A stretch of DNA of 64,000 nt from Labia minor (Eukaryota; Arthropoda; Insecta; Dermaptera; Spongiphoridae), in the NCBI GenBank assembly GCA_963082975.1, contig OY720348.1, forward strand, positions 71,139,719-71,203,718, given 5' to 3'. Positions 1,551 through 56,254 of this stretch are shown here, piece by piece. Within the stretch, counting starts at the first letter, position 1. Each line of letters begins with the position of its first letter. The notes beneath the pieces were generated by a model that was not told the origin of the DNA, made no database searches, and worked only from the letters and a program-made list of their open reading frames with translations. The position numbers were made by a program, and so were the translations under genes.

Positions 1551-1683
1551 ATATATAAAATATATATAGGATATGCTGAGAGAACAGAGAATCAGAAGAA
1601 AGGAAATTAATAAGATTAATAATATAATTAAAATAGAATACATCTAAAATATATATATTATGAAGATCGAAATTTTAATGATA

Positions 1684-2105
1684 AATATGAAAAAGGGATG
1701 GAAGGTGGGTGTTGAATGCGCGCAAGCAGCCGTAAGGCCAATTGCCTAACTCCAAGGGGCAAAGTAAAATATGACTTTCTATAAAAAAATGAATGAAATT
1801 TTATAACAATCAACCCCTATTTTTTATGATTGAATATTGTTTTAATTGATATTTAACAAAGGGGGTGTATAGGGGGAATAAAAATTTCTTCCATTTTGCT
1901 CAAACTCACCCCGAAATACGTTTTTTCTTAGAAAAACACTCTTTTTTCAATTTATTGAAATTTCTCTTAGAAATAATTGAATTAATTTCATTCTCTAGAT
2001 TTAATCTTATCTAAGTCCTTGAATTGACAATGGTTTGGTCATTTTTATAAATTCCAATTTCTTCAGGATAAATTTAAACCCTTAATTGATTACATTCAAA
2101 TTAAA
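1684..2105 (+). repeat. Dispersed repeat R, copy 1
   Basis: Diagnostic blocks are GAATGCGCGCAAGCAGCCG, CCAAGGGGCAAAGTAAA, CAACCCCTATTTTT and AGGGGGAATAAAAATTTC. Further copies are at 3968-4400 (same strand) and 33115-33632 (inverted). No open reading frame of note. Confidence 0.75.
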
Positions 2106-2106
2106 A

Positions 2107-2465
2107 AAAAAAAGCGTGAATTTTAATTAATAGTTTAGGCAAAATGATACTTTTTTAAATACAAATGTAAAATATATACATAAATACAAATGTAAAATAT
2201 TATATATCATTGTCTTCCATTTCTGATCCTAAACACGAATCAATTCATATTTTATCGATATAATCATTTTTTTCATTGATTTCATAAAAAAGCTCGAATC
2301 AGTATTTATATTTGAGGGAAAATTCTACTATTTTAAATACAAATCTAAAATTTATTTATTATATATAATTTTCTTCGATTTTTAGTTCTAAATTAGAATA
2401 TATTCATATTTCATCGATATCATAATTTTTTTCATTGATTTCATAGAAAAAGCGTGAATTTTTGT
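2107..2465. repeat. Diverged relatives of the 160-bp satellite
   Basis: Slightly over two degenerate monomers with the landmarks of the main array: AAAAAGCGTGAATTTT, CTACTATTTTAAATACAAA, CATCGATATCATAATTTTTT and GATTTCATAGAAAAAG. They lie about 3 kb outside the array and differ from it at many positions. They may be old edge copies or founders of the family. Confidence 0.65.
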
Positions 2466-2560
2466 TAATTTGTCGACTCCGACCGCTGAGCAAAGTTGAT
2501 ACCCCTAATCGGAGGGTCATCGTCCGCCAACTTTTCATAATATTGACGGTAAAAATAAAA
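2466..2560 (+). repeat. GC-richer dispersed motif, copy 1
   Basis: Contains CCGACCGCTGAGC, AATCGGAGGGTCATCGTCCG and CATAATATTGACGGTAAA. Closely related copies lie at 33953-34040 and 34175-34262. It is conspicuous in otherwise AT-only DNA. Function unknown. Confidence 0.6.
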
Positions 2561-3200
2561 ATTGAATTTTTTTAAAAAAAATAATAAATTCATTTATTTT
2601 ACATTATAACAATATTAAAAAATTATATTTTTGATATTTTGGATGAAAAAATTTTTTTTTTTGCATATTATAATACGATAGGGACGAAATATATTGATCA
2701 ATGATGAGTTATTAATGAAATGAAATTTGAAAATGAAATATGAAAATGAAATAAGGTTTTTGTTTAAAAAAATAAAATAGATTTTTTTATTCTCTTGAAA
2801 TTATATATACAATGAATATATTATTTTATTAAAATAGTAATGAAATAAAATAAAAAGAAACAACAGTTAATTGATTCTATTATAATAATAAGAAAATAAA
2901 ATATTAAACATTAATTAGATTCGACATTTATAGATAGAAAAATCAAAAACCTAAGTTATTATATATCATTTTCTTCCATTTCTAATTATATAATTTTAAT
3001 ATCTGATATATAATTATAAAAACAATAAGAATAAACCCAGTGAAACATGTATAAATGTGTATAATAAATAAAATAAGTTGACCTGTGGCCAGGTCCGAAC
3101 CGACCGACGGTTTGAAATAAATTAATTTCCAGCTACAGAAACAATTTCAAATAATTTTAATATATCTATTAATGTAATAAAAAACAGATAGGCATACATA
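2561..3200. other. AT-rich intergenic stretch, no gene seen
   Basis: Dominated by A/T runs. A short satellite-like piece near 2960-2985 and a GC island GACCTGTGGCCAGGTCCGAA near 3080 are the only landmarks. Confidence 0.6.
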
Positions 3201-5015: not shown

Positions 5016-5403
5016 AAACGCTACTTGTATAGGTAAAATGTCACTTCCGGTAGTCAGATCATGATGAAATTTGGTATCTGAATTTTTTTCATATTTTTAA
5101 ATCTATATACAAAATATGAAGCAAATATCTAGAAGCAAACTGGTACTTTACTTGAAAGGTAAACGCAACCAGTGTAGGTAAAGTACCACTTCCGGTTAAC
5201 CGATTTTGACGAAATTTTGATAGAAATCTACAAACTGTGAATAATATCGGTGTACCAAATTTTGAAGTCCTAGCTTGATTAGTTTTTGAGTAAATTTGCT
5301 TAGAGACATTACATACATACATACATACACACAGACATAATTCGAAAAATGGTATTTTCCGACTCAGGGAGGTCTAAAACGTCAAGATCTATCGAAATCT
5401 CGA
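5016..5403 (+). repeat. Repeat with CACTTCCGG blocks, left boundary of satellite
   Basis: Contains two GGTAAA..CACTTCCGGT blocks (about 5034 and 5178), a CATACATACA run, and GTCTAAAACGTCAAGA ending at GAAGTCGAAG where the first satellite monomer begins. The apparent 77-aa minus-strand reading frame over it is a by-product of the repeat. Confidence 0.5.
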
Positions 5404-8400
5404 AGTCGAAGTTTAAATAGAAATATAAAATTTATGAATTATATATCATTCTTATTTATTTCTTATTCTAAACACGAATAAATTCAAATTTCATCGATAT
5501 CTCAATTATTTTCGTGGATTTCATAGAAAAAACGACATTTTTCATTAAGATTTTAGCGAAAATGCTACTTTTTTAAATAGAAATATAAAATTTATGAATT
5601 ATATATCATTCTTATTTATTTGTTATTCTAAACACGAATAAATTCCAATTTCATCGATATCTCAATTATTTTCGTGGATTTCATAGAAAAAACGACATTT
5701 TTCATTAAGATTTTAGCGAAAATGCTACTTTTTTAAATAGAAATATAAAATTTATGAATTATATATCATTCTTATTTATTTCTTATTCTAAACACGAATA
5801 AATTCCAATTTCATCGATATCTCAATTATTTTCGTGGATTTCATAGAAAAAAACGACATTTTTCATTAAGATTTTAGCGAAAATGCTACTTTTTTAAATA
5901 GAAATATAAAATTTATGAATTATATATCATTCTTAATTTATTTCTTATTCTAAACACGAATAAATTCAAATTTCATCGATATCTCAATTATTTTCGTGGA
6001 TTTCATAGAAAAAAACGACATTTTTCATTAAGATTTTAGCGAAAATGCTACTTTTTTAAATAGAAATATAAAATTTATGAATTATATATCATTCTTATTT
6101 ATTTCTTATTCTAAACACGAATAAATTCAAATTTCATCGATATCTCAATTATTTTCGTGGATTTCATAGAAAAAACGACATTTTTCATTAAGATTTTAGC
6201 GATAATGCTACTTTTTTAAATAGAAATATAAAATTTATGAATTATATATCATTCTTATTTATTTCTTATTCTAAACACGAATAAATTCAAATTTCATCGA
6301 TATCTCAATTATTTTCGTGGATTTCATAGAAAAAACGACATTTTTCATTAAGATTTTAGCGAAAATGCTACTTTTTAAATAGAAATATAAAATTTATGAA
6401 TTATATATCATTCTTATTTATTTCTTATTCTAAACACGAATAAATTCAAATTTCATCGATATCTCAATTATTTTCGTGGATTTCATAGAAAAAACGACAT
6501 TTTTCATTAAGATTTTAGCGATAATGCTACTTTTTTAAATAGAAATATAAAATTTATGAATTATATATCATTCTTATTTATTTCTTATTCTAAACACGAA
6601 TAAATTCAAATTTCATCGATATCTCAATTATTTTCGTGGATTTCATAGAAAAAACGACATTTTTCATTAAGATTTTAGCGAAAATGCTACTTTTTTAAAT
6701 AGAAATATAAAATTTATGAATTATATATCATTCTTATTTATTTCTTATTCTAAACACGAATAAATTCAAATTTCATCGATATCTCAATTATTTTCGTGGA
6801 TTTCATAGAAAAAAAACGACATTTTTCATTAAGATTTTAGCGAAAATGCTACTTTTTTAAATAGAAATATAAAATTTATGAATTATATATCATTCTTATT
6901 TATTTCTTATTCTAAACACGAATAAATTCAAATTTCATCGATATCTCAATTATTTTCGTGGATTTCATAGAAAAAACGACATTTTTCATTAAGATTTTAG
7001 CGAAAATGCTACTTTTTTAAATAGAAATATAAAATTTATGAATTATATATCATTCTTATTTATTTCTTATTCTAAACACGAATAAATTCAAATTTCATCG
7101 ATATCTCAATTATTTTCGTGGATTTCATAGAAAAAACGACATTTTTCATTAAGATTTTAGCGAAAATGCTACTTTTTTAAATAGAAATATAAAATTTATG
7201 AATTATATATCATTCTTATTTATTTCTTATTCTAAACACGAATAAATTCAAATTTCATCGATATCTCAATTATTTTCGTGGATTTCATAGAAAAAACGAC
7301 ATTTTTCATTAAGATTTTAGCGAAAATGCTACTTTTTTAAATAGAAATATAAAATTTATGAATTATATATCATTCTTATTTATTTCTTATTCTAAACACG
7401 AATAAATTCAAATTTCATCGATATCTCAATTATTTTCGTGGATTTCATAGAAAAAACGACATTTTTCATTAAGATTTTAGCGAAAATGCTACTTTTTTAA
7501 ATAGAAATATAAAATTTATGAATTATATATCATTCTTATTTATTTATTCTAAACACGAATAAATTCAAATTTCATCGATATCTCAATTATTTTCGTGGAT
7601 TTCATAGAAAAAACGACATTTTTCATTAAGATTTTAGCGAAAATGCTACTTTTTTAAATAGAAATATAAAATTTATGAATTATATATCATTCTTATTTAT
7701 TTCTTATTCTAAACACGAATAAATTCAAATTTCATCGATATCTCAATTATTTTCGTGGATTTCATAGAAAAAACGACATTTTTCATTAAGATTTTAGCGA
7801 AAATGCTACTTTTTTAAATAGAAATATAAAATTTATGAATTATATATCATTCTTATTTATTTCTTATTCTAAACACGAATAAATTCAAATTTCATCGGAT
7901 ATCTCAATTATTTTCGTGGATTTCATAGAAAAAACGACATTTTTCATTAAGATTTTAGCGAAAATGCTACTTTTTTAAATAGAAATATAAAATTTATGAT
8001 TATATATCATTCTTATTTATTGCTTATTCTAAACACGAATAAATTCAAATTTCATCGATATCTCAATTATTTTCGTGGATTTCATAGAAAAAACGACAGT
8101 TTTCATTAAGATTTTAGCGAAAATGCTACTTTTTTAAATAGAAATATAAAATTTATGAATTATATATCATTCTTATTTATTTCTTATTCTAAAACACGAA
8201 TAAATTCAAATTTCATCGATATCTCAATTATTTTCGTGGATTTCATAGAAAAAACGACATTTTTCATTAAGATTTTAGCGAGAATGCTACTTTTTTAAAT
8301 AGAAATATAAAATTTATGAATTATATATCATTCTTATTTATTTCTTATTCTAAACACGAATAAATTCAAATTTCATCGATATCTCAATTATTTTCGTGGA

Positions 8401-11400
8401 TTTCATAGAAAAAACGACATTTTTCATTAAGATTTTAGCGATAATGCTACTTTTTTAAATAGAAATATAAAATTTATGAATTATATATCATTCTTATTTA
8501 TTTCTTATTCTAAACACGAATAAATTCAAATTTCATCGATATCTCAATTATTTTCGTGGATTTCATAGAAAAAACGACATTTTTCATAAGATTTTAAGCG
8601 AAAATGCTACTTTTTTAAATAGAAATATAAAATTTATGAATTATATATCATTCTTATTTATTTCTTATTCTAAACACGAATAAATTCAAATTTCATCGAT
8701 ATCTCAATTATTTTCGTGGATTTCATAGAAAAAACGACATTTTTCATTAAGATTTTAGCGAAAATGCTACTTTTTTAAATAGAAATATAAAATTTATGAA
8801 TTATATATCATTCTTATTTATTTCTTATTCTAAACACGAATAAATTCAAATTTCATCGATATCTCAATTATTTTCGTGGATTTCATAGAAAAAAACGACA
8901 TTTTTCATTAAGATTTTAGCGAAAATGCTACTTTTTTAAATAGGAAATATAAAATTTATGAATTATATATCATTCTTATTTATTTCTTATTCTAAACACG
9001 AATAAATTCAAATTTCATCGATATCTCAATTATTTTCGTGGATTTCATAGAAAAAACGACATTTTTCATTAAGATTTTAGCGAAAATGCTACTTTTTTAA
9101 ATAGAAATATAAAATTTATGAATTATATATCATTCTTATTTATTTCTTATTCTAAACACGAATAAATTCAAATTTCATCGATATCTCAATTATATTTCGT
9201 GGATTTCATAGAAAAAACGACATTTTTCATTAAGATTTTAGCGAAAATGCTACTTTTTTAAATAGAAATATAAAATTTATGAATTATATATCATTCTTAT
9301 TTATTTCTTATTCTAAACACGAATAAATTCAAATTTCATCGATATCTCAATTATTTTCGTGGATTTCATAGAAAAAACGACATTTTTCATTAAGATTTTA
9401 GCGAAAATGCTACTTTTTTAAATAGAAATATAAAATTTATGAATTATATATCATTCTTATTTATTTCTTATTCTAAACACGAATAAATTCAAATTTCATC
9501 GATATCTCAATTATTTTCGTGGATTTCATAGAAAAAACGACATTTTTCATTAAGATTTTAGCGAAAATGCTACTTTTTTAAATAGAAATATAAAATTTAT
9601 GAATTATATATCATTCTTATTTATTTCTTATTCTAAACACGAATAAATTCAAATTTCATCGATATCTCAATTATTTTCGTGGATTTCATAGAAAAAACGA
9701 CATTTTTCATTAAGATTTTAGCGAAAATGCTACTTTTTTAAATAGAAATATAAAATTTATGAATTATATATCATTCTTATTTATTTCTTATTCTAAACAC
9801 GAATAAATTCAAATTTCATCGATATCTCAATTATTTTCGTGGATTTCATAGAAAAAACGACATTTTTCATTAAGATTTTAGCGAAAATGCTACTTTTTTA
9901 AATAGAAATATAAAATTTATGAATTATATATCATTCTTATTTATTTCTTATTCTAAACACGAATAAATTCAAATTTCATCGATATCTCAATTATTTTCGT
10001 GGATTTCATAGAAAAAACGACATTTTTCATTAAGATTTTAGCGAAAATGCTACTTTTTTAAATAGAAATATAAAATTTATGAATTATATATCATTCTTAT
10101 TTATTTCTTATTCTAAACACGAATAAATTCAAATTTCATCGATATCTCAATTATTTTCGTGGATTTCATAGAAAAAACGACATTTTTCATTAAGATTTTA
10201 GCGAAAATGCTACTTTTTTAAATAGAAATATAAAATTTATGAATTATATATCATTCTTATTTATTTCTTATTCTAAACACGAATAAATTCAAATTTCATC
10301 GATATCTCAATTATTTTCGTGGATTTCATAGAAAAAACGACATTTTTCATTAAGATTTTAGCGAAAATGCTACTTTTTTAAATAGAAATATAAAATTTAT
10401 GAATTATATATCATTCTTATTTATTTCTTATTCTAAACACGAATAAATTCAAATTTCATCGATATCTCAATTATTTTCGTGGATTTCATAGAAAAAACGA
10501 CATTTTTCATTAAGATTTTAGCGAAAATGCTACTTTTTTAAATAGAAATATAAAATTTATGAATTATATATCATTCTTATTTATTTCTTATTCTAAACAC
10601 GAATAAATTCAAATTTCATCGATATCTCAATTATTTTCGTGGATTTCATAGAAAAAACGTACATTTTTCATTAAGATTTTAGCGAAAATGCTACTTTTTT
10701 AAATAGAAATATAAAATTTATGAATTATATATCATTCTTATTTATTTCTTATTCTAAACACGAATAAATTCAAATTTCATCGATATCTCAATTATTTTCG
10801 TGGATTTCATAGAAAAAACGACATTTTTCATTAAGATTTTAGCGAAAATGCTACTTTTTTAAATAGAAATATAAAATTTATGAATTATATATCATTCTTA
10901 TTTATTTCTTATTCTAAACACGAATAAATTCAAATTTCATCGATATCTCAATTATTTTCGTGGATTTCATAGAAAAAACGACATTTTTCATTAAGATTTT
11001 AGCGAAAATGCTACTTTTTTAAATAGAAATATAAAATTTATGAATTATATATCATTCTTATTTATTTCTTATTCTAAACACGAATAAATTCAAATTTCAT
11101 CGATATCTCAATTATTTTCGTGGATTTCATAGAAAAAACGACATTTTTCATTAAGATTTTAGCGAAAATGCTACTTTTTTAAATAGAAATATAAAATTTA
11201 TGAATTATATATCATTCTTATTTATTTCTTATTCTAAACACGAATAAATTCAAATTTCATCGATATCTCAATTATTTTCGTGGATTTCATAGAAAAAACG
11301 ACATTTTTCATTAAGATTTTAGCGAAAATGCTACTTTTTTAAATAGAAATATAAAATTTATGAATTATATATCATTCTTATTTATTTCTTATTCTAAACA

Positions 11401-14400
11401 CGAATAAATTCAAATTTCATCGATATCTCAATTATTTTCGTGGATTTCATAGAAAAAACGACATTTTTCATTAAGATTTTAGCGAAAATGCTACTTTTTT
11501 AAATAGAAATATAAAATTTATGAATTATATATCATTCTTATTTATTTCTTATTCTAAACACGAATAAATTCAAATTTCATCGATATCTCAATTATTTTCG
11601 TGGATTTCATAGAAAAAACGACATTTTTCATTAAGATTTTAGCGAAAATGCTACTTTTTTAAATAGAAATATAAAATTTATGAATTATATATCATTCTTA
11701 TTTATTTCTTATTCTAAACACGAATAAATTCAAATTTCATCGATATCTCAATTATTTTCGTGGATTTCATAGAAAAAACGACATTTTTCATTAAGATTTT
11801 AGCGAAAATGCTACTTTTTTAAATAGAAATATAAAATTTATGAATTATATATCATTCTTATTTATTTCTTATTCTAAACACGAATAAATTCAAATTTCAT
11901 CGATATCTCAATTATTTTCGTGGATTTCATAGAAAAAACGACATTTTTCATTAAGATTTTAGCGAAAATGCTACTTTTTTAAATAGAAATATAAAATTTA
12001 TGAATTATATATCATTCTTATTTATTTCTTATTCTAAACACGAATAAATTCAAATTTCATCGATATCTCAATTATTTTCGTGGATTTCATAGAAAAAACG
12101 ACATTTTTCATTAAGATTTTAGCGAAAATGCTACTTTTTTAAATAGAAATATAAAATTTATGAATTATATATCATTCTTATTTATTTCTTATTCTAAACA
12201 CGAATAAATTCAAATTTCATCGATATCTCAATTATTTTCGTGGATTTCATAGAAAAAACGACATTTTTCATTAAGATTTTAGCGAAAATGCTACTTTTTT
12301 AAATAGAAATATAAAATTTATGAATTATATATCATTCTTATTTATTTCTTATTCTAAACACGAATAAATTCAAATTTCATCGATATCTCAATTATTTTCG
12401 TGGATTTCATAGAAAAAACGACATTTTTCATTAAGATTTTAGCGAAAATGCTACTTTTTTAAATAGAAATATAAAATTTATGAATTATATATCATTCTTA
12501 TTTATTTCTTATTCTAAACACGAATAAATTCAAATTTCATCGATATCTCAATTATTTTCGTGGATTTCATAGAAAAAACGACATTTTTCATTAAGATTTT
12601 AGCGAAAATGCTACTTTTTTAAATAGAAATATAAAATTTATGAATTATATATCATTCTTATTTATTTCTTATTCTAAACACGAATAAATTCAAATTTCAT
12701 CGATATCTCAATTATTTTCGTGGATTTCATAGAAAAAACGACATTTTTCATTAAGATTTTAGCGAAAATGCTACTTTTTTAAATAGAAATATAAAATTTA
12801 TGAATTATATATCATTCTTATTTATTTCTTATTCTAAACACGAATAAATTCAAATTTCATCGATATCTCAATTATTTTCGTGGATTTCATAGAAAAAACG
12901 ACATTTTTCATTAAGATTTTAGCGAAAATGCTACTTTTTTAAATAGAAATATAAAATTTATGAATTATATATCATTCTTATTTATTTCTTATTCTAAACA
13001 CGAATAAATTCAAATTTCATCGATATCTCAATTATTTTCGTGGATTTCATAGAAAAAACGACATTTTTCATTAAGATTTTAGCGAAAATGCTACTTTTTT
13101 AAATAGAAATATAAAATTTATGAATTATATATCATTCTTATTTATTTCTTATTCTAAACACGAATAAATTCAAATTTCATCGATATCTCAATTATTTTCG
13201 TGGATTTCATAGAAAAAACGACATTTTTCATTAAGATTTTAGCGAAAATGCTACTTTTTTAAATAGAAATATAAAATTTATGAATTATATATCATTCTTA
13301 TTTATTTCTTATTCTAAACACGAATAAATTCAAATTTCATCGATATCTCAATTATTTTCGTGGATTTCATAGAAAAAACGACATTTTTCATTAAGATTTT
13401 AGCGAAAATGCTACTTTTTTAAATAGAAATATAAAATTTATGAATTATATATCATTCTTATTTATTTCTTATTCTAAACACGAATAAATTCAAATTTCAT
13501 CGATATCTCAATTATTTTCGTGGATTTCATAGAAAAAACGACATTTTTCATTAAGATTTTAGCGAAAATGCTACTTTTTTAAATAGAAATATAAAATTTA
13601 TGAATTATATATCATTCTTATTTATTTCTTATTCTAAACACGAATAAATTCAAATTTCATCGATATCTCAATTATTTTCGTGGATTTCATAGAAAAAACG
13701 ACATTTTTCATTAAGATTTTAGCGAAAATGCTACTTTTTTAAATAGAAATATAAAATTTATGAATTATATATCATTCTTATTTATTTCTTATTCTAAACA
13801 CGAATAAATTCAAATTTCATCGATATCTCAATTATTTTCGTGGATTTCATAGAAAAAACGACATTTTTCATTAAGATTTTAGCGAAAATGCTACTTTTTT
13901 AAATAGAAATATAAAATTTATGAATTATATATCATTCTTATTTATTTCTTATTCTAAACACGAATAAATTCAAATTTCATCGATATCTCAATTATTTTCG
14001 TGGATTTCATAGAAAAAACGACATTTTTCATTAAGATTTTAGCGAAAATGCTACTTTTTTAAATAGAAATATAAAATTTATGAATTATATATCATTCTTA
14101 TTTATTTCTTATTCTAAACACGAATAAATTCAAATTTCATCGATATCTCAATTATTTTCGTGGATTTCATAGAAAAAACGACATTTTTCATTAAGATTTT
14201 AGCGAAAATGCTACTTTTTTAAATAGAAATATAAAATTTATGAATTATATATCATTCTTATTTATTTCTTATTCTAAACACGAATAAATTCAAATTTCAT
14301 CGATATCTCAATTATTTTCGTGGATTTCATAGAAAAAACGACATTTTTCATTAAGATTTTAGCGAAAATGCTACTTTTTTAAATAGAAATATAAAATTTA

Positions 14401-17042
14401 TGAATTATATATCATTCTTATTTATTTCTTATTCTAAACACGAATAAATTCAAATTTCATCGATATCTCAATTATTTTCGTGGATTTCATAGAAAAAACG
14501 ACATTTTTCATTAAGATTTTAGCGAAAATGCTACTTTTTTAAATAGAAATATAAAATTTATGAATTATATATCATTCTTATTTATTTCTTATTCTAAACA
14601 CGAATAAATTCAAATTTCATCGATATCTCAATTATTTTCGTGGATTTCATAGAAAAAACGACATTTTTCATTAAGATTTTAGCGAAAATGCTACTTTTTT
14701 AAATAGAAATATAAAATTTATGAATTATATATCATTCTTATTTATTTCTTATTCTAAACACGAATAAATTCAAATTTCATCGATATCTCAATTATTTTCG
14801 TGGATTTCATAGAAAAAACGACATTTTTCATTAAGATTTTAGCGAAAATGCTACTTTTTTAAATAGAAATATAAAATTTATGAATTATATATCATTCTTA
14901 TTTATTTCTTATTCTAAACACGAATAAATTCAAATTTCATCGATATCTCAATTATTTTCGTGGATTTCATAGAAAAAACGACATTTTTCATTAAGATTTT
15001 AGCGAAAATGCTACTTTTTTAAATAGAAATATAAAATTTATGAATTATATATCATTCTTATTTATTTCTTATTCTAAACACGAATAAATTCAAATTTCAT
15101 CGATATCTCAATTATTTTCGTGGATTTCATAGAAAAAAGACATTTTTCATTAAGATTTTAGCGAAAATGCTACTTTTTTAAATACAAATATAAAATTTAT
15201 GAATTATATATCATTCTTATTTATTTCTTATTCTAAACACGAATAAATTCAAATTTCATCGATATCTCAATTATTTTCGTGGATTTCATAGAAAAAACGA
15301 CATTTTTCATTAAGATTTTAGCGAAAATGCTACTTTTTTAAATACAAATATAAAATTTATGAATTATATATCATTCTTATTTATTTCTTATTCTAAACAC
15401 GAATAAATTCAAATTTCATCGATATCTCAATTATTTTCGTGGATTTCATAGAAAAAACGACATTTTTCATTAAGATTTTAGCGAAAATGCTACTTTTTTA
15501 AATACAAATATAAAATTTATGAATTATATATCATTCTTATTTATTTCTTATTCTAAACACGAATAAATTCAAATTTCATCGATATCTCAATTATTTTCGT
15601 GGATTTCATAGAAAAAACGACATTTTTCATTAAGATTTTAGCGAAAATGCTACTTTTTTAAATACAAATATAAAATTTATGAATTATATATCATTCTTAT
15701 TTATTTCTTATTCTAAACACGAATAAATTCAAATTTCATCGATATCTCAATTATTTTCGTGGATTTCATAGAAAAAACGACATTTTTCATTAAGATTTTA
15801 GCGAAAATGCTACTTTTTTAAATACAAATATAAAATTTATGAATTATATATCATTCTTATTTATTTCTTATTCTAAACACGAATAAATTCAAATTTCATC
15901 GATATCTCAATTATTTTCGTGGATTTCATAGAAAAAACGACATTTTTCATTAAGATTTTAGCGAAAATGCTACTTTTTTAAATACAAATATAAAATTTAT
16001 GAATTATATATCATTCTTATTTATTTCTTATTCTAAACACGAATAAATTCAAATTTCATCGATATCTCAATTATTTTCGTGGATTTCATAGAAAAAACGA
16101 CATTTTTCATTAAGATTTTAGCGAAAATGCTACTTTTTTAAATACAAATATAAAATTTATGAATTATATATCATTCTTATTTATTTCTTATTCTAAACAC
16201 GAATAAATTCAAATTTCATCGATATCTCAATTATTTTCGTGGATTTCATAGAAAAAACGACATTTTTCATTAAGATTTTAGCGAAAATGCTACTTTTTTA
16301 AATACAAATATAAAATTTATGAATTATATATCATTCTTATTTATTTCTTATTCTAAACACGAATAAATTCAAATTTCATCGATATCTCAATTATTTTCGT
16401 GGATTTCATAGAAAAAACGACATTTTTCATTAAGATTTTAGCGAAAATGTTACTTTTTTAAATACAAATATAAAATTTATGAATTATATATCATTCTTAT
16501 TTATTTCTTATTCTAAACACGAATAAATTCAAATTTCATCGATATCTCAATTATTTTCGTGGATTTCATAGAAAAAACGACATTTTTCATTAAGATTTTA
16601 GCGAAAATGCTACTTTTTTAAATACAAATATAAAATTTATGAATTATATATCATTCTTATTTATTTCTTATTCTAAACACGAATAAATTCAAATTTCATC
16701 GATATCTCAATTATTTTCGTGGATTTCATAGAAAAAACGACATTTTTCATTAAGATTTTAGCGAAAATGCTACTTTTTTAAATACAAATATAAAATTTAT
16801 GAATTATATATCATTCTTATTTATTTCTTATTCTAAACACGAATAAATTCAAATTTCATCGATATCTCAATTATTTTCGTGGATTTCATAGAAAAAACGA
16901 CATTTTTCATTAAGATTTTAGCGAAAATGCTACTTTTTTAAATACAAATATAAAATTTATGAATTATATATCATTCTTATTTATTTCTTATTCTAAACAC
17001 GAATAAATTCAAATTTCATCGATATCTCAATTATTTTCGTGG
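5404..17042. repeat. 160-bp tandem satellite array, left block (~73 monomers)
   Basis: A head-to-tail array with a period of exactly 160 bp; for example GGATTTCATAGAAAAAACGA starts at 9361, 9521 and 9681. Monomer landmarks in order: GAAAAAACGACATTTTTC, GATTTTAGCGAAAATGC, TACTTTTTTAAATAGAAATA, GAATTATATATCATTC, CTAAACACGAATAAATTC, CATCGATATCTCAATTATTT. Differences are mostly single-base changes or A-run length. From about 10.8 to 15.1 kb successive monomers look identical by eye. Twelve consecutive monomers from 15.18 to 16.95 kb carry AAATACAAAT instead of AAATAGAAAT. There is no open frame and no spacer. Length and homogeneity suggest a heterochromatic or pericentromeric satellite; that location is inference. 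Confidence 0.98.
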
Positions 17043-17242
17043 NNNNNNNNNNNNNNNNNNNNNNNNNNNNNNNNNNNNNNNNNNNNNNNNNNNNNNNNNN
17101 NNNNNNNNNNNNNNNNNNNNNNNNNNNNNNNNNNNNNNNNNNNNNNNNNNNNNNNNNNNNNNNNNNNNNNNNNNNNNNNNNNNNNNNNNNNNNNNNNNNN
17201 NNNNNNNNNNNNNNNNNNNNNNNNNNNNNNNNNNNNNNNNNN
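17043..17242. other. Assembly gap (200 N)
   Basis: Exactly 200 Ns, the usual placeholder for a gap of unknown size. It starts inside a satellite monomer and ends inside an E element, so the junction between them and an unknown amount of satellite are missing. Reading frames across it are meaningless. Confidence 0.98.
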
Positions 17243-17846
17243 ATCATGAAAATTTTCGATGTTGAGATTTTGATGTTTTTATACGTTTTGAAGGTTCCTG
17301 AATCATTTTCACTAAGGTTGAGAAAAATGTCTGTGTGTGTGTGTGTATGTGTGTGTGTATGTGTGTGTGTGTATGTATGTAGACAAGATTACGCAAAAAA
17401 CGGTTTGAGCTAGAATGATGAAATTTGTTACATGGACATTATTCAAAATTTCATAGTTTTTCTATCAACTTTTGAGAAATGTAGCTCAACCGGAAGAGGG
17501 TCATTACCTACAACGTTTTGATTTTTTTTTTCCTCTAAAGTGACCGTAAAAATTAAAAATATATGTTTGATAATTTTTCACATGATTAATAATTGTATAA
17601 AACTGCTATATATAGAATTTTCAGCTTGATTGAATTGCTGAAAGTACCAGAATTAATTTTTTTAACACTGCAAATCTCACGCGCCAAACACGTGCCATGG
17701 TGCCATCAATAAAAAGCCAAAACATGCGCTGGTTTAATATTTATTATTTATAATTTATAATTAATTAAATTTAATTTAAATATAATATATTATGTTATTT
17801 AATCCAATTCAAATTGCGAGATAGTCGAGTGGAGACACTCCAGCTA
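17243..17846 (-). mobile_element. Element E, copy 2, inside the satellite array
   Basis: A nearly full-length inverted E copy with a GT-microsatellite (17331-17380), the GAAAATTTTCGATGTTGAGA block, CCGGAAGAGGGTCATTACC, the AT-rich block, and the terminal hairpin GAGTGGAGACACTC. Its 5' end abuts satellite sequence (AATTCATTAAGATTTTTGCG), consistent with insertion into a monomer. Its 3' end is lost in the gap. It separates the two satellite blocks. Confidence 0.85.
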
Positions 17847-20800
17847 ATTCATTAAGATTTTTGCGAAAATGCTACTTTTTTAAATAGAAATATAAAATTT
17901 ATGAATTATATATCATTCTTATTTATTTCTTATTCTAAACACGAATAAATTCAATTCAAATTTCATCGATATCTCAATTATTTTCGTGGATTTCATAGAA
18001 AAAAACGACATTTTTCATTAAGATTTTAGCGAAAATGCTACTTTTTTAAATAGAAATATAAAATTTATGAATTATATATCATTCTTATTTATTTCTTATT
18101 CTAAACACGAATAAATTCAAATTTCATCGATATCTCAATTATTTTCGTGGATTTCATAGAAAAAACGACATTTTTCATTAAGATTTTAGCGAAAATGCTA
18201 CTTTTTTAAATAGAAATATAAAATTTATGAATTATATATCATTCTTATTTATTTCTTATTCTAAACACGAATAAATTCAATTCAAATTTCATCGATATCT
18301 CAATTATTTTCGTGGATTTCATAGAAAAAACGACATTTTTCATTAAGATTTTTGCGAAAATGCTACTTTTTTAAATAGAAATATAAAATTTATGAATTAT
18401 ATATCATTCTTATTTATTTCTTATTCTAAACACGAATAAATTCAAATTTCATCGATATCTCAATTATTTTCGTGGATTTCATAGAAAAAACGACATTTTT
18501 CATTAAGATTTTAGCGAAAATGCTACTTTTTTAAATAGAAATATAAAATTTATGAATTATATATCATTCTTATTTATTTCTTATTCTAAACACGAATAAA
18601 TTCAAATTTCATCGATATCTCAATTATTTTCGTGGATTTCATAGAAAAAACGACATTTTTCATTAAGATTTTAGCGAAAATGCTACTTTTTTAAATAGAA
18701 ATATAAAATTTATGAATTATATATCATTCTTATTTATTTCTTATTCTAAACACGAATAAATTCAAATTTCATCGATATCTCAATTATTTTCGTGGATTTC
18801 ATAGAAAAAACGACATTTTTCATTAAGATTTTAGCGAAAATGCTACTTTTTTAAATAGAAATATAAAATTTATGAATTATATATCATTCTTATTTATTTC
18901 TTATTCTAAACACGAATAAATTCAAATTTCATCGATATCTCAATTATTTTCGTGGATTTCATAGAAAAAACGACATTTTTCATTAAGATTTTAGCGAAAA
19001 TGCTACTTTTTTAAATAGAAATATAAAATTTATGAATTATATATCATTCTTATTTATTTCTTATTCTAAACACGAATAAATTCAAATTTCATCGATATCT
19101 CAATTATTTTCGTGGATTTCATAGAAAAAAACGACATTTTTCATTAAGATTTTTGCGAAAATGCTAATTTTTTAAATAGAAATATAAAATTTATGAATTA
19201 TATATCATTCTTATTTATTTCTTATTCTAAACACGAATAAATTCAAATTTCATCGATATCTCAATTATTTTCGTGGATTTCATAGAAAAAACGACATTTT
19301 TCATTAAGATTTTTGCGAAAATGCTACTTTTTTAAATAGAAATATAAAATTTATGAATTATATATCATTCTTATTTATTTCTTATTCTAAACACGAATAA
19401 ATTCAAATTTCATCGATATCTCAATTATTTTCGTGGATTTCATAGAAAAAACGACATTTTTCATTAAGATTTTAGCGAAAATGCTACTTTTTTAAATAGA
19501 AATATAAAATTTATGAATTATATATCATTCTTATTTATTTCTTATTCTAAACACGAATAAATTCAAATTTCATCGATATCTCAATTATTTTCGTGGATTT
19601 CATAGAAAAAACGACATTTTTCATTAAGATTTTAGCGAAAATGCTACTTTTTTAAATAGAAATATAAAATTTATGAATTATATATCATTCTTATTTATTT
19701 CTTATTCTAAACACGAATAAATTCAATTCAAATTTCATCGATATCTCAATTATTTTCGTGGATTTCATAGAAAAAACGACATTTTTCATTAAGATTTTAG
19801 CGAAAATGCTACTTTTTTAAATAGAAATATAAAATTTATGAATTATATATCATTCTTATTTATTTCTTATTCTAAACACGAATAAATTCAAATTTCATCG
19901 ATATCTCAATTATTTTCGTGGATTTCATAGAAAAAACGACATTTTTCATTAAGATTTTAGCGAAAATGCTACTTTTTTAAATAGAAATATAAAATTTATG
20001 AATTATATATCATTCTTATTTATTTCTTATTCTAAACACGAATAAATTCAAATTTCATCGATATCTCAATTATTTTCGTGGATTTCATAGAAAAAACGAC
20101 ATTTTTCATTAAGATTTTAGCGAAAATGCTACTTTTTTAAATAGAAATATAAAATTTATGAATTATATATCATTCTTATTTATTTCTTATTCTAAACACG
20201 AATAAATTCAAATTTCATCGATATCTCAATTATTTTCGTGGATTTCATAGAAAAAAACGACATTTTTCATTAAGATTTTAGCGAAAATGCTACTTTTTTA
20301 AATAGAAATATAAAATTTATGAATTATATATCATTCTTATTTATTTCTTATTCTAAACACGAATAAATTCAAATTTCATCGATATCTCAATTATTTTCGT
20401 GGATTTCATAGAAAAAACGACATTTTTCATTAAGATTTTAGCGAAAATGCTACTTTTTTAAATAGAAATATAAAATTTATGAATTATATATCATTCTTAT
20501 TTATTTCTTATTCTAAACACGAATAAATTCAAATTTCATCGATATCTCAATTATTTTCGTGGATTTCATAGAAAAAACGACATTTTTCATTAAGATTTTA
20601 GCGAAAATGCTACTTTTTTAAATAGAAATATAAAATTTATGAATTATATATCATTCTTATTTATTTCTTATTCTAAACACGAATAAATTCAAATTTCATC
20701 GATATCTCAATTATTTTCGTGGATTTCATAGAAAAAACGACATTTTTCATTAAGATTTTAGCGAAAATGCTACTTTTTTAAATAGAAATATAAAATTTAT

Positions 20801-23028
20801 GAATTATATATCATTCTTATTTATTTCTTATTCTAAACACGAATAAATTCAAATTTCATCGATATCTCAATTATTTTCGTGGATTTCATAGAAAAAACGA
20901 CATTTTTCATTAAGATTTTAGCGAAAATGCTACTTTTTTAAATAGAAATATAAAATTTATGAATTATATATCATTCTTATTTATTTCTTATTCTAAACAC
21001 GAATAAATTCAAATTTCATCGATATCTCAATTATTTTCGTGGATTTCATAGAAAAAACGACATTTTTCATTAAGATTTTAGCGAAAATGCTACTTTTTTA
21101 AATAGAAATATAAAATTTATGAATTATATATCATTCTTATTTATTTCTTATTCTAAACACGAATAAATTCAAATTTCATCGATATCTCAATTATTTTCGT
21201 GGATTTCATAGAAAAAACGACATTTTTCATTAAGATTTTAGCGAAAATGCTACTTTTTTAAATAGAAATATAAAATTTATGAATTATATATCATTCTTAT
21301 TTATTTCTTATTCTAAACACGAATAAATTCAAATTTCATCGATATCTCAATTATTTTCGTGGATTTCATAGAAAAAACGACATTTTTCATTAAGATTTTA
21401 GCGAAAATGCTACTTTTTTAAATAGAAATATAAAATTTATGAATTATATATCATTCTTATTTATTTCTTATTCTAAACACGAATAAATTCAAATTTCATC
21501 GATATCTCAATTATTTTCGTGGATTTCATAGAAAAAACGACATTTTTCATTAAGATTTTAGCGAAAATGCTACTTTTTTAAATAGAAATATAAAATTTAT
21601 GAATTATATATCATTCTTATTTATTTCTTATTCTAAACACGAATAAATTCAAATTTCATCGATATCTCAATTATTTTCGTGGATTTCATAGAAAAAACGA
21701 CATTTTTCATTAAGATTTTAGCGAAAATGCTACTTTTTTAAATAGAAATATAAAATTTATGAATTATATATCATTCTTATTTATTTCTTATTCTAAACAC
21801 GAATAAATTCAAATTTCATCGATATCTCAATTATTTTCGTGGATTTCATAGAAAAAACGACATTTTTCATTAAGATTTTAGCGAAAATGCTACTTTTTTT
21901 AAATAGAAATATAAAATTTATGAATTATATATCATTCTTATTTATTTCTTATTCTAAACACGAATAAATTCAAATTTCATCGATATCTCAATTATTTTCG
22001 TGGATTTCATAGAAAAAACGACATTTTTCATTAAGATTTTAGCGAAAATGCTACTTTTTTAAATAGTAATATAAAATTTATGAATTATATATCATTCTTA
22101 TTTATTTCTTATTCTAAACACGAATAAATTCAAATTTCATCGATATCTCAATTATTTTCGTGGATTTCATAGAAAAAACGACATTTTTTCATTAAGATTT
22201 TAGCGAAAATGCTACTTTTTTAAATAGAAATATAAAATTTATGAATTATATATCATTCTTATTTATTTCTTATTCTAAACACGAATAAATTCAAATTTCA
22301 TCGATATCTCAATTATTTTCGTGGATTTCATAGAAAAAACGACATTTTTCATTAAGATTTTAGCGAAAATGCTACTTTTTTAAATAGAAATATAAAATTT
22401 ATGAATTATATATCATTCTTATTTATTTCTTATTCTAAACACGAATAAATTCAAATTTCATCGATATCTCAATTATTTTCGTGGATTTCATAGAAAAAAC
22501 GACATTTTTCATTAAGATTTTAGCGAAAATGCTACTTTTTTAAATAGAAATATAAAATTTATGAATTATATATCATTCTTATTTATTTCTTATTCTAAAC
22601 ACGAATAAATTCAAATTTCATCGATATCTCAATTATTTTCGTGGATTTCATAGAAAAAACGACATTTTTCATTAAGATTTTAGCGAAAATGCTACTTTTT
22701 TAAATAGAAATATAAAATTTATGAATTATATATCATTCTTATTTATTTCTTATTCTAAACACGAATAAATTCAAATTTCATCGATATCTCAATTATTTTC
22801 GTGGATTTCATAGAAAATACGACATTTTTCATTAAGATTTTAGCGAAAATGCTACTTTTTTAAATAGAAATATAAAATTTATGAATTATATATCATTCTT
22901 ATTTATTTCTTATTCTAAACACGAATAAATTCAAATTTCATCGATATCTCAATTATTTTCGTGGATTTCATAGAAAAAACGACATTTTTCATTAAGATTT
23001 TAGCGAAAATGCTACTTTTTTAAATAAA
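17847..23028. repeat. 160-bp tandem satellite array, right block (~32 monomers)
   Basis: Same family and phase direction as the left block. Local variants include TTTTTGCG for TTTTAGCG and a 5-bp insertion giving AATTCAATTCAAATTTC at about 17950, 18277 and 19725. It ends at TACTTTTTTAAATA near 23028, where repeat F begins. Confidence 0.98.
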
Positions 23029-23165
23029 AATTAATAAATCTATCTAATTCTAAATAAATAGAAAAATAAACAAAACATAAGAATAGATAGAATAAATCAA
23101 AGATTGACAGATAGATAGAAAGAAAAAAATAATTATCTCTTATTAATCTAAATAGAATAATTAAT
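23029..23165 (+). repeat. Dispersed repeat F, inverted relative to 583-730
   Basis: Nearly the exact reverse complement of 583-730, including AAACATAAGAATAGATAGAA and AATTATCTCTTATTAATC. Together with the following E copy it mirrors the left edge of the window, so the satellite lies between inverted F-E units. Confidence 0.85.
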
Positions 23166-23168
23166 AAC

Positions 23169-23745
23169 CTGGAGTTTCTCTACTCGACTATCTCGCAATT
23201 TGAATTGTAAAAAACAAACATAAGATATTATATTTAAATTAAATTGAATTAATAAAAATTATAAATTAAAATTAATACACATAATATTTATTATACCAGG
23301 GCACGTCAGTTTATGTACTGACGCGTGATTTGCAGTCGTGTTAAAAAATTAAATCCGGTACTTTCAGCGATTCAATCAAGCTGAAATTCTAGATATATCA
23401 GTTTTATACAATTTTTAATGATGTGAAAAATTATCAAACATTTATCTTTATTTTTACCGTCAGTTTATTGGAAAAAAAATAAAACGTGGTAGATAATGGT
23501 CCTCTTCCTACTTGGTCTACATTTCTCAAAATTTGAAAGAACACTACGAATATTGATTAATACCTGTGTACCAAATATCATGATTCTAGTTTAAAGCGTT
23601 TTTGCGTAATCTAGTCTACATAAATACACAGACACACAGACATTTTCCTCAACCTTAGTGAAAATGATTCAGGAATTTTCAAAACGTATAAAAACATCAA
23701 AATCAAGACATCGAAAATTTTCTTCATCGCAATACCATCTCTGCG
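23169..23745 (+). mobile_element. Element E, copy 3
   Basis: Starts CTGGAGTTTCTCTACTCG and runs through CGACTATCTCGCAATTTG, CAATCAAGCTGAAATTC and CTCAACCTTAGTGAAAATG to GCAATACCATCTCTGCGCTC. The microsatellite is short (ACACAGACACACAG), and the 3' hairpin is degenerate. A few GC-rich bases that follow are not part of other copies. Confidence 0.8.
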
Positions 23746-26298: not shown

Positions 26299-28727
26299 AT
26301 GGATCTTGATTTACAAGAAGACAGAAAATATCCAATATATATAGGTAATTTTTATTTCTATGTTTTTTCCATGTTAATTATCACTAAAATGATAATTATA
26401 TAAAAAGTTACTCCAACATGGATTTGGATAAAACTTTACCTGTGGGGTCCTTTATTTATTCTAATAAACTTTTCTTATGAAATTTTTGCGGGACGCTCCT
26501 AGTTTACGAGATAAAAACTATTAAATTTTGAATATAAATCTGTGGCGTCGGTTAAATTTAAAATATTTTCTAAAAAAATTAAATTCAATATAAATTAAAT
26601 TAAATATTATATTAAATAAAAAATATTATTTTAAACAAAATTAAATATTATTTTTAAAAGGATTAAATATTATTTGAATAAAAATAAAATATTTTTATAG
26701 CTAAAATTAAATATTTTTTATAATGAAAATTATATATTTTATCTAAAAATATTATTATTATTATTAATCCCTATAAGCAAATTGTGCCTTTAAGGACAGT
26801 GGCGTCGGGCCGGGGGGGGGGGACATGTGCCCATCCAAAAATTGTGCAAAAAATAAATTTAAAAGTGATTAGTTTTGTAACAGAGAACCCAAAAGTAAAA
26901 ACCATCTTTAAATTAAGTATAAGTATAGTCTAAACGTTATGAATAAATAATTTATTTTGTCAAAATTTTTCGGGGGGAGACCCCCGGACCCCCCTATCCC
27001 CCATAATACATCATTCTACGCCACTGTTCAAGATTGCTGAGTTGTTTTTAATTATTCAACCTACACACATTTAGATATATATTCTATTATTATTATTATT
27101 ATTAACAAGTAACATATTTTATAAAATATGAATGTGTTTTATTAATAAATAACCTTCTGCTTATAACCGTGAAAGAGTCATTGGATTTAACAAAAGACAA
27201 ATCCAAAAATCCATTTATATTCTATTTAGATTTAGCTAGCATGTTTTATCAATTGACCACCTGAGCGCGCCACTTATTATCGGTTTTTCTAAGATCGGTT
27301 TGGATTTATGAAAGTTAAAAAATTAATTAATTATATAATTTCTCTGTATCCAAAGCGAAAATTAGTGAATTAGTGAATAAAACATTACTTGAAGGCACAT
27401 TTCCCCGTAAATAACCAACTAATCTGACAGATTTCAAAAATCTTCATTAATCTCGTAAACTAGGAAGCGTCCTGCAAAAATTTCATAAGAAAACTTTATT
27501 GGAAACAAAAAAGAACGCACTGGTAAAGTTTTATCCAAATCCATGTTGGGGTAACTTTTTTGTATAATTACCAGACATATATAATGATTTAAAATAACGA
27601 AAACAACTCTTTTTTTAGGTCCTCTATATCCTTGTATATATTGTTATACAAGTTTTATAAGTGAGGAATTTTTATCGAAACATCTGAAAAAATGTATACA
27701 TAAAAAAATATTTTCCATTTTCAAAAATAAGTTAAATCTGAAAAAGGGTACAAAGAACGACGAAAATTTTAAAAAAGAAAATGATTCAAACCATACAGAA
27801 AACAGTCGTTTTGAATGTAATTATTGTAAAAAGAAATTTAATATGAAATCTTATTTGGATAGTCATTTATTAATTCATACTGGAAAAAAAGAATTTGAAT
27901 GTAATTATTGTAAAAAGAAATTTTATTTTAATTCAACTTTAAAAAGACATTTATTAATTCATACTGGAGAAAAACAATTTGAATGTAATTATTGTAAAAA
28001 GAAATTTAATCATAAATCAAATTTAAATAAGCATTTATTAATTCATACAGGAGAAAAACCTTTTGAATGTAATTATTGTAAAAAGAAATTTAATCATAAA
28101 TCAAATATAGATAGACATTTAAAAATTCATACAGGAGAAAAACCTTTTGAATGTAATTATTGTAAAAAGAAATTTAATGAAAAATCAAAATTGAATAGAC
28201 ATTTATTAATTCATACAGGAGAAAAACCTTTTGAATGTAATAATTGTAAAAAGAAATTTAATCATAAATCAAATTTAGATAGACATTTATTAATTCATAC
28301 AGGAGAAAAACCTTATGAATGTAATTATTGTAAAAAGAAATTTATTCAAAAATCTGATTTAGCTAATCATATATTAATTCATAATGGAGAAAAACCTTTT
28401 GAATGTAATTATTGTAAAAAGAAATTTATTCAAAAATCTGATTTAGCTAATCATATATTAATTCATACTGGAGAAAAACCTTTTGAATGTAATTATTGTA
28501 AAAAGAAATTGAAATTGAAATCACATTTAAAATCACATTTATTAATTCATACAGGAGAAAAACCTTTTGAATGTAATAATTGTAAAAAGAAATTTAATCA
28601 TAAATCAAATTTAAATAAGCATTTATTAATTCATACTGGAGAAAAACCTTTTGAATGTAATAATTGTAAAAAGAAATTTAAACAGAAATCTCATTTGGAT
28701 AGACATTTATTAACACATAATGTTTGA
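26299..28727 (+). CDS. C2H2 zinc-finger protein, two exons (26299-26344, 27619-28727)
   Basis: Joining 26299-26344 to 27619-28727 gives an uninterrupted 384-residue protein. The start is the first ATG after an in-frame TAA at 26278. The donor is G|GTAATT and the acceptor is TTTTTTTAG|GT after a pyrimidine tract; the frame is preserved across a phase-1 intron. Residues 1-79 hold a divergent finger-like CIYC..H..H segment and a basic linker. Residues 80-384 are eleven C2H2 fingers at an exact 28-residue period, C-X2-C-X12-H-X3-H, with HTGEKP linkers; the last ends at THNV. Helix residues (-1,2,3,6) run MSYS, FSTR, HSNK, HSNR, ESKR, HSNR, QSDN, QSDN, LSHS, HSNK, QSHR. Likely a nuclear DNA-binding regulator; target unknown. 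No KRAB, BTB or ZAD domain is seen. A run starting at the internal Met of 27843 would lose finger 1. Confidence 0.88.
26391..27572. mobile_element. Long inverted-repeat element filling the zinc-finger gene intron
   Basis: Arms 26391-26513 and 27450-27572 are inverted repeats of about 120 bp. Both contain AACATGGATTTGGATAAAAC, CTTATGAAATTTTTGC and CTAGTTTACGAGAT in opposite orientations. The element takes up 1182 of the 1274 intron bases, leaving about 90 bp of intron without it. The interior is AT-rich and non-coding and contains a separate hAT-like insertion. The superfamily is unresolved; the outer ends read near TAATTATA. Confidence 0.85.
26797..27026. mobile_element. hAT-type MITE nested in the intron element
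   Basis: Ends CAGTGGCGTCGGG and, on the opposite strand, CAGTGGCGTAGAA are hAT-style termini. G-runs lie inside both ends (CCGGGGGGGGGG, CGGGGGGAGACCCCCGGA). Flanking 8-mers TTTAAGGA and TTCAAGAT match only partly, suggesting an old insertion. Confidence 0.65.
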
Positions 28728-30989: not shown

Positions 30990-31323
30990 TATAGATAGAT
31001 AGATAGGTAGATAGATAAATTAGTATAAATTAAAATGAATAAAATTTTCTAGTGAAATAATTAAATAGACCAATTAAATAGGAAAATAATAATAATTGAA
31101 GTATATATATACTGAAACATAAAAAAAAATAATAATAATAAATATAGGCAAAACAAATATAGGAGAGACTATAATACAAATAAATATATATATATTATGT
31201 AGTCGAAAAACAATATGAAAAAAAGTAGTTAATACAAATAATTAAAAAATTAATACAAATGAAAGATGAGATTTTCATTTTTATTATTTCATCGATATTT
31301 AATTTGTGAACAGATAAGAAATA
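30990..31323 (+). repeat. Repeat F-like flank before element E, copy 4
   Basis: Begins with (GATA)n at 30994-31015. The segment with ATATAGGAGAGACTATA and GAAAGATGAGATTTTCATTT is the reverse complement of the 1000-1150 region, which extends the E-F association. Confidence 0.5.
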
Positions 31324-31940: not shown

Positions 31941-31959
31941 AAAAAGGATTTTAAGTGAA

Positions 31960-33800: not shown

Positions 33801-33952
33801 CGATGATAATTTTTGAAATTATTTTTTTTTAATTATTTATAAATAATGATAGTTTCATATAAAATTATTATTTTTTAAAAAAATCCTATATTATTGATAT
33901 TTTTGATGAAAAATTATTTTTTTTTTGTTACATATTTTTATAGTTTTTTACC

Positions 33953-34262
33953 TTTTGTCGAGTCCGACAGCTGAGCCAAGTATATACCCCCAATCGGAGG
34001 GTCATCGTCCGCCAGCTTTTCATAATTTTGACGGTAAAAATATAAAAAATGAAATTTTAAAAAATTAATAATAAATTCATTCATTTTGCATCATAAAAAT
34101 ATTAAAAAAATATATTATTGATATTTTTGATGAAAAATTATTTTTTTTTTTTACATATTTTTAAACATTTTTTACATTTTTTGAGTCCGACCGCTGACCC
34201 AAGTTTATACCACCAATCGATGGGTCATCGTCCGCCAACCTTTCATAATTTTGACGGTAAAT
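33953..34262 (+). repeat. Two tandem copies of the GTCCGAC..CATCGTCCGCC motif
   Basis: Copies at 33953-34040 and 34175-34262, about 220 bp apart, each with GAGTCCGAC, CTGA(G/C)CCAAGT, GGGTCATCGTCCGCCA and CATAATTTTGACGGTAAA. They match 2466-2560. Confidence 0.65.
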
Positions 34263-48040: not shown

Positions 48041-48079
48041 ATATATATAAAAATATTTCGATATAAATAAAAAAATCAT

Positions 48080-49775: not shown

Positions 49776-49776
49776 T

Positions 49777-56250: not shown

Positions 56251-56254
56251 TTAG

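What the first reader, a model, noticed from the sequence alone, without database searches (positions are those of the whole stretch)
5404..23028. Large 160-bp satellite, about 105 visible monomers
The period is exactly 160 bp, near nucleosomal length, with very high copy-to-copy identity. The array runs into a 200-N gap, so the true array is probably longer. A homogeneous AT-rich satellite of this size is a centromere or heterochromatin candidate.
Basis: partly seen in the sequence, partly recalled or inferred. Interest (0 to 1): 0.7.

Follow-up and report, generated by a model that had tools for sequence, protein, structure and literature searches.

The report
Earwig satellite DNA near chromosome ends
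A run of about 105 nearly identical 160-letter repeats on the X chromosome of the lesser earwig belongs to a repeat family that also sits near the ends of other chromosomes, and is more likely packed chromosome-end DNA than a centromere.

Summary
The array is real: 105 monomers of 160 bp (72.7 + 32.3), 99.6% identical to consensus, 20% GC, at 5412-17042 and 17848-23031. A 200-N gap and a 605-bp mobile element (17243-17847) split it; that element has the architecture of a non-autonomous Helentron (HINE). [quoted passage not shown] all seven chromosome lengths match the published assembly to the base. The satellite is not confined to this locus: an exact 50-mer occurs 3,302 times. The 20 places I could locate (capped lists) are on all seven chromosomes, each within 15 Mb of an end. 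A 75%-identical 161-bp relative and a second 161-bp satellite occupy 7 of 14 sampled scaffold ends. The heterochromatin idea fits but is untested. Best reading: a recently homogenised subterminal satellite, spread between chromosome ends and invaded by HINEs; a new member of a known kind. A pairing-centre-like role is a speculative possibility.

The parts
5412..17042 (+). Array A of the 160-bp satellite (SatA160), 72.7 copies; left edge variable, middle (A22-A56) uniform
   Evidence: TRF; monomer table
17043..17242 (.). 200-N assembly gap of unknown true size; expected to hold the last ~26 bp-worth of E's 5' end and the array/element junction
   Evidence: E 5' ends
17243..17847 (+). Element E: 605-bp dispersed HINE-like insertion (subterminal inverted repeats, 3' hairpin-like end, TG microsatellite, no ORF of note), inserted in the satellite
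17848..23031 (+). Array B of the same satellite, same strand, 32.3 copies; contains 3 private 165-bp monomers next to E
   Evidence: TRF
10661..15138 (+). Stretch of exact 160-bp periodicity (4,318 bp of matches to the next monomer)
15139..17042 (+). Block of monomers A58-A68 (and the cut last one) carrying G47C, the state also seen in SatC, in the short monomers at 2148-2468 and in chromosome 1 arrays
   Evidence: start computed from the interval list
5040..5414 (+). 3' part of dispersed element F, whose copies end exactly at 5414: the left edge of the array is a transposon end
   Evidence: 38 of 39 other scored copies end at 5414, one earlier
23032..23148 (.). 117-bp spacer at the right edge, also found beside an E fragment at 576-722
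   Evidence: (23032-23413 matches 722-353 at 84.7%)
23149..23743 (-). Diverged E copy (78%) at the right edge, inverted relative to 17243-17847
2109..2468 (+). About two diverged SatA-like monomers inside a dispersed composite repeat
2513..2664 (+). SatB-like segment directly after the SatA-like monomers, same composite
1660..2112 (+). Body of the composite repeat (first-look 2,710 candidates genome-wide for the 1660-2690 query)

Best explanation
[quoted passage not shown] Shown: tandem arrays of one 160-bp unit, on all seven chromosomes, each located place within 15 Mb of an end; relatives SatC and SatB at scaffold ends; local private variants and a homogenised middle; HINE-type insertions at and inside the array. 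Inferred: unequal exchange within the array homogenises the middle and leaves variable edges; exchange between non-homologous chromosome ends moves blocks between chromosomes while tending to keep their orientation relative to the telomere; short SatA/SatB composites dispersed in the genome are either the seeds or the fossils of the arrays; the 10.0-bp AA/TT phasing (16 helical turns per monomer) favours regular curved or nucleosomal packing. Element E is a later passenger that landed in a T-run of a monomer, not part of the satellite.
For: Array and identity. 3,302 exact 50-mers, reversed control 0. 20 located places on 7 of 7 chromosomes, 20 of 20 within 15 Mb of an end (35% of chromosome length), 18 of 20 within 10 Mb (23%). 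Orientation + at left ends and - at right ends in 16 of 20 (two-sided binomial 0.012 if independent). SatC orientation 4 of 4 and SatB 3 of 3 consistent with chromosome end. SatA160-SatC identity 75% against 55% mean and 63% maximum for 200 shuffles. 165-bp variant 3 times in the genome, all next to E; G47C shared with chromosome 1 arrays, 447 copies. AA/TT 10.0-bp signal: 0 of 1000 dinucleotide shuffles, 1 of 288 control segments. Terminal satellite heterochromatin is known in holocentric bugs (PMC13427858 passages).
Against: No chromatin, FISH or read-depth data. Place lists were capped (100 of 3,302; 100 of 447; 100 of 155), so arrays elsewhere may have been missed; 3 of the 20 places rest on a single 44-mer match. 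Places on one arm are not independent, so the p-values are optimistic. 4 of 20 places, the window itself among them, have the opposite orientation. Up to 14.5 Mb from an end is subterminal only in a loose sense. The 10.67-bp period gave no signal (150 of 1000 shuffles), and SatB has no 10-bp peak.
Confidence: 0.72

Rival explanations
1. Localised centromere of chromosome X built on SatA160.
For: Near-nucleosomal 160-bp unit, high homogeneity and AT-richness are usual for centromeric satellites (general knowledge). Two old cytological reports of constrictions in Forficula are cited in PMC4359364.
Against: Earwigs are reported holocentric and CenH3 was not detected in two earwig transcriptomes (restated in PMC11471171). 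Several separate arrays lie on one arm, e.g. three places on chromosome 1 and four on C5. No CENP-B-box match with up to 2 substitutions. Neither CenH3 nor kinetochores were tested in this species.
Confidence: 0.04
2. Holocentromere unit, like the 172-bp Tyba arrays of Rhynchospora: many 15-25 kb satellite blocks along each chromosome seed the kinetochore, spread by Helitrons.
For: Array size (about 17.6 kb), unit length and a Helentron-type element in the array resemble the Tyba case described in PMC10264360 (passages).
Against: Tyba has 448-727 units per chromosome; here chromosome 1 lists no exact SatA160 50-mer before 117.12 Mb, and located places cluster near ends.
Confidence: 0.05
3. The array is the expanded central repeat block of a giant Helentron/HINE: array B lies between inverted E copies.
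For: E copies flank array B in inverted orientation; E 3' ends also abut SatA-like repeats at L078; HINEs with central satellite-like repeats are known (PMC7492417 abstract, PMC12628747 passages).
Against: The same satellite continues left of the gap (array A) outside the pair; the two flanking E copies are only 78% identical; E is a complete element on its own, with 6 of 7 other fetched copies carrying full 5' ends and none of the 7 carrying the satellite.
Confidence: 0.07
4. Assembly artefact: array length or uniformity produced by the assembler.
For: A gap lies in the array; 34 consecutive single monomers are identical; HiFi coverage is about 24-fold and X is at half coverage (PMC11937785).
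Against: The unit occurs with other variants in separate arrays and contigs. QV 57.7 is reported. Only true length, not existence, is in doubt.
Confidence: 0.04

Closest known systems
Terminal-heterochromatin satellites of holocentric insects (Edessa bugs, PMC13427858; passages seen)
   Same: Abundant satellite families concentrated near chromosome ends of holocentric chromosomes, with recent homogenisation.
   Different: Different order and sequence; here blocks lie up to 14.5 Mb inside the arm, and heterochromatin is not shown.
DINE-1 / HINE non-autonomous Helentrons (PMC4067079; passages seen)
   Same: Element E: subterminal inverted repeats, inverted repeat nested in the 5' one, 3' palindrome, microsatellite, T-rich target, no coding capacity.
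   Different: The 3' hairpin is not more stable than shuffles (19 of 200 as stable); no autonomous partner was sought.
Cg_HINE central repeats of oyster (PMC7492417; abstract seen)
   Same: Satellite-like tandem repeats found both as arrays and next to or inside dispersed elements, here the SatA/SatB composites.
   Different: The composites' ends were not shown to be HINE ends, and E carries no central satellite array.
Tyba of Rhynchospora (PMC10264360; passages seen)
   Same: About 170-bp unit, 15-25 kb arrays, holocentric host, Helitron involvement proposed.
   Different: Tyba arrays are spread along chromosomes and carry CENH3; SatA160 lies near ends and earwigs appear to lack CenH3.
Pairing centres of C. 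elegans (PMC9071541; passages seen)
   Same: Repeated motifs near one end of each holocentric chromosome.
   Different: 12-base motifs bound by zinc-finger proteins, not 160-bp satellite arrays; no binding protein or meiotic role known here; C4 has places at both ends.

Membership tests
Satellite DNA | Long head-to-tail arrays of a non-coding unit | tested here: met
   105 copies of 160 bp, 99% matches
Satellite DNA | High genomic copy number beyond one locus | tested here: met
   3,302 exact 50-mers; places on seven chromosomes
Satellite DNA | Location in constitutive heterochromatin | not testable with these tools
   no chromatin data
Centromeric satellite | Association with CenH3 or kinetochore | not testable with these tools
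   CenH3 reported undetected in two other earwigs; not examined in L. minor
Centromeric satellite | One main site per monocentric chromosome | tested here: not met
   several separate places on one arm on C1, C2, C5 and C6
Centromeric satellite | CENP-B box (present in some centromeric satellites only; motif recalled) | tested here: not met
   no match with up to 2 substitutions, both strands
Subterminal/subtelomeric satellite | Concentrated near chromosome ends | tested here: met
   20 of 20 located places within 15 Mb, 18 of 20 within 10 Mb of an end; lists capped
Holocentromere satellite (Tyba type) | Arrays spread along the chromosome | tested here: not met
   chromosome 1: first listed exact 50-mer at 117.12 of 126.26 Mb
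HINE (element E) | Subterminal inverted repeats | tested here: met
   ACTATCTCGC / GCGAGATAGT in other copies; the 5' one of the window copy is in the gap
HINE (element E) | Palindrome near the 3' end | tested here: inconclusive
   GTGGAG-ACA-CTCCAG present, but fold z -1.41, 19 of 200 shuffles as stable
HINE (element E) | T-rich/TT insertion site | tested here: inconclusive
   T-rich flanks seen by eye in the fetched copies; no empty-site test
HINE (element E) | Shares ends with an autonomous Rep/Hel Helentron | not tested
   no search made

The most novel reading that the evidence does not exclude
SatA160 clusters mark one end of most of these holocentric chromosomes and act like pairing centres: landing platforms in the outer arm that help homologues find each other or give the chromosome one active end in meiosis, kept similar between chromosomes by exchange among ends and bound by a sequence-specific factor that reads the phased A/T tracts. 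Among the six chromosomes seen in the lists, five (C1, C2, C5, C6, C9) have located places at one end only and one (C4) at both; C10 is known only from the window.
Probability: 0.05. Interest if true: 0.85.

Novelty: new member of a known kind. Interest (0 to 1): 0.42.

Why it matters
How holocentric insects that lack CenH3 organise repeats is little studied. This gives a monomer, relatives and located arrays in a chromosome-scale earwig assembly, and a clear question: why does this satellite cluster in outer arms, often of one end, instead of spreading along holocentric chromosomes? I found no paper on earwig satellite DNA in the held open-licence library: 'earwig' + 'satellite DNA' gave 7 papers and 'Dermaptera' + 'satellitome' 2, none on earwig satellites as judged from titles and abstract beginnings; subscription journals are not covered.

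Tried and rejected
Considered and rejected or left open. (a) A TIR-type transposon with a satellite inside: suggested by the inverted E copies, rejected because array A continues beyond the pair and the copies differ by 22%. (b) X-specific satellite (cf. Drosophila 1.688): SatA160 itself is not X-specific. (c) CENP-B box: none. (d) RNA genes: no Rfam match at gathering scores, no tRNA in the window. (e) Genes beside the array: of 7 ORFs given to Pfam, out of 13 listed, only 27588-28727 matched. (f) Monomer as a DNA query returned 0 candidates because the tool skips very common words; this is uninformative, as the query is in the genome. (g) Alignment attempt one search was unusable and script one search failed; one search replaced them. 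(h) Pattern counts for the G-type monomer, for SatC and for variant A27T were asked but did not complete (124, 134, 137; 125, 127, 131, 133, 136). (i) The right-edge query window:23000-23165 was asked once and not answered.

Correction to my own note: entry says 40 of 40 copies of F end at 5414; the recount is 38 of 39 other copies, one ending earlier.

Full report
Observation. TRF finds period 160 at 5412-17042 (72.7 copies) and 17848-23031 (32.3 copies), 99% matches. Of 98 anchor intervals 79 are exactly 160 bp. The whole has 60 differences in 16,320 bp from consensus, and 60 of 94 single monomers equal it. GC of the monomer is 20%; the published chromosomes have 26-26.5% (PMC11937785). The finding is confirmed in place, copy number, period and homogeneity.

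Anatomy. The array is split by a 200-N gap (17043-17242) and by element E (17243-17847). E is a complete dispersed element: the genome search gave 2,625 first-look candidates, of which 40 were scored; 41 long places were listed, 38 of them starting at base 1 of the query. Other copies show a 26-bp 5' end that the window copy lacks, in 6 of 7 other fetched copies, and three copies in the window have it too (31314-31949, 48064-48662, 49768-50380). So the gap hides the 5' tip of E and the junction, and the simplest reading is E inserted into one array; this is inferred, not shown. The left edge of the array at 5412-5414 is the 3' end of another dispersed element, F: 38 of 39 other scored copies end exactly at window 5414, with 89-99% identity, on all seven chromosomes. 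The right edge at 23031 is followed by a 117-bp spacer and a diverged inverted E copy.

Internal evolution. Single monomers vary at the left edge (13 of 19 in A1-A21 differ) and not at all in A22-A56 (0 of 34). Monomers A58-A68 carry G47C; the C state is also that of SatC, of the diverged monomers at 2148-2468 and of the single monomer in L011, so the G of most window monomers is probably derived. G47C occurs 447 times in the assembly, and the first 100 listed are all in two chromosome 1 arrays. A 165-bp variant occurs 3 times in the genome, all in array B beside E. This is the pattern expected from unequal exchange inside arrays with occasional exchange between chromosomes (inference).

Organism. 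The window is C10:71139719-71203718 of a 604,477,936-base genome. Lengths of C1, C2, C4, C5, C6, C9 and C10 equal those of chromosomes 1, 2, 3, 4, 5, 6 and X of Labia minor in Table 1 of PMC11829193 (main text read in part 1 of 2). C10 is X. The (TTCGG)n telomere I saw at four sampled ends is already published there.

Distribution. The monomer as a DNA query gave nothing because common words are skipped. As exact patterns: a 50-mer occurs 3,302 times (1,081 forward, 2,221 reverse); the first 100 places, listed in contig order, begin at 117.12 Mb of chromosome 1. An 8-A variant occurs 155 times; the first 100 fall on C1, C2, C4, C5, C6 and C9. Joining places closer than about 0.5 Mb and adding the window gives 20 places, of which 3 rest on one match. 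All 20 are within 15 Mb of an end, 18 of 20 within 10 Mb; 16 of 20 read + at left ends or - at right ends. The window is one of the 4 exceptions. What lies in the unlisted 55 of 155 and 3,202 of 3,302 I did not see.

Relatives. Of 14 sampled ends of the seven chromosome scaffolds, 7 are filled by a 161-bp satellite, SatC (C2 left, C5 both, C9 right) or SatB (C1 left, C10 left, C2 right), 4 by telomere repeats, 3 by neither. SatC is 75% identical to SatA160; 200 shuffles reached 63% at most. SatC and SatB keep one orientation relative to the end in 4 of 4 and 3 of 3 cases. Of 49 sampled unplaced contigs (of 64; first stretches only), 4 begin with SatA160 (C12, C41, C64; C22 a 94%-identical form), 16 with SatC or a diverged form, 3 with SatB. 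C12 carries other variants than the window array, so it is a different array. Short composites of about two SatA-like monomers followed by a SatB-like segment occur at window 2121-2664 and in L076 and L078, with mixed orders in L077 and L017. The window copy and L076 are duplicates of one longer stretch (96%), so the composites are not five independent cases. Whether composites seed arrays or derive from them is open.

Physical property. AA/TT steps in SatA160 have a 10.0-bp period, 16 turns per unit: 0 of 1000 dinucleotide shuffles reach it, 1 of 288 window segments does. SatC has a weaker 10.06-bp peak, SatB does not. It fits curved or rotationally phased DNA; it is not proof of function, and I looked at several harmonics.

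Centromere question. PMC4359364 (passages) reports Dermaptera as holocentric on several species, notes two dissenting reports for Forficula, and found no CenH3 in two earwig transcriptomes; PMC11471171 repeats this (passages). A single localised centromere on this array is therefore unlikely, and a Tyba-like spread of units (PMC10264360 passages) does not fit chromosome 1. In holocentric Edessa bugs amplified satellites make terminal heterochromatin (PMC13427858 passages), which is the nearest parallel.

Element E. It matches HINE architecture as described in PMC4067079 (passages): inverted subterminal repeats, an inverted repeat nested in the 5' one, a 3' palindrome, a microsatellite and T-rich flanks. 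Against: the hairpin is not unusually stable (19 of 200 shuffles as stable), there was no empty-site test, and no autonomous partner was sought. I call it HINE-like.

Verdict. It is a new satellite family of a known kind with an interesting distribution. The bold reading, a pairing-centre-like cluster at one end of holocentric chromosomes, rests only on position (five of six listed chromosomes one-sided in capped lists) and gets 5%.

Noticed in passing
window 27588-28727 (+); L011:3943-4931: An open frame of 379 aa with about ten C2H2 zinc fingers (Pfam zf-H2C2_2 E 2.8e-89) made of 84-bp units; a second 84-bp tandem zinc-finger-like array lies in L011, left of the window.
   Followed up: partly
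query window 1660-2690; C10 59.21-59.25 Mb and 66.28-66.30 Mb: The composite's body looks X-enriched: 11 of 12 clusters among the 40 scored candidates are on C10 (X), against 6 of 41 places for E (5.2 expected). It also forms tandem arrays of about 981 bp and 3,105 bp. Caveats: best 40 of 2,710 only, query from X, local duplication.
   Followed up: partly
window about 1460-2900 and L076 (C10:70369213-70370617): Inverted segmental duplicate about 0.77 Mb away on X, 96% identical over the queried 1,031 bp and similar beyond it.
   Followed up: no
unplaced contigs C7 and C8 (L019, L020): 151-bp shortened form of SatB fills the first 10 kb of each.
   Followed up: no
unplaced satellite contigs (23 of 49 sampled): The genome note expects a Y chromosome that is missing from the assembly (PMC11937785); satellite-only contigs could include Y sequence. 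Coverage would tell.
   Followed up: no
L078:1-186 (C2:10.0758 Mb): A truncated E 3' end lies about 15 bp from SatA-like monomers, a second E-satellite neighbourhood.
   Followed up: partly
window 35152-35475 (+): 107-aa open frame that looks to me like the C-terminal part of a non-LTR reverse transcriptase (by eye and recall); no Pfam match.
   Followed up: no
window 60121-60194; 56252-56364; 33887-34357: Other tandem repeats: 10-bp CCGAGTAGAG x7.4, a TAGTA-rich minisatellite, and a SatB-like 221-bp unit x2.1.
   Followed up: no
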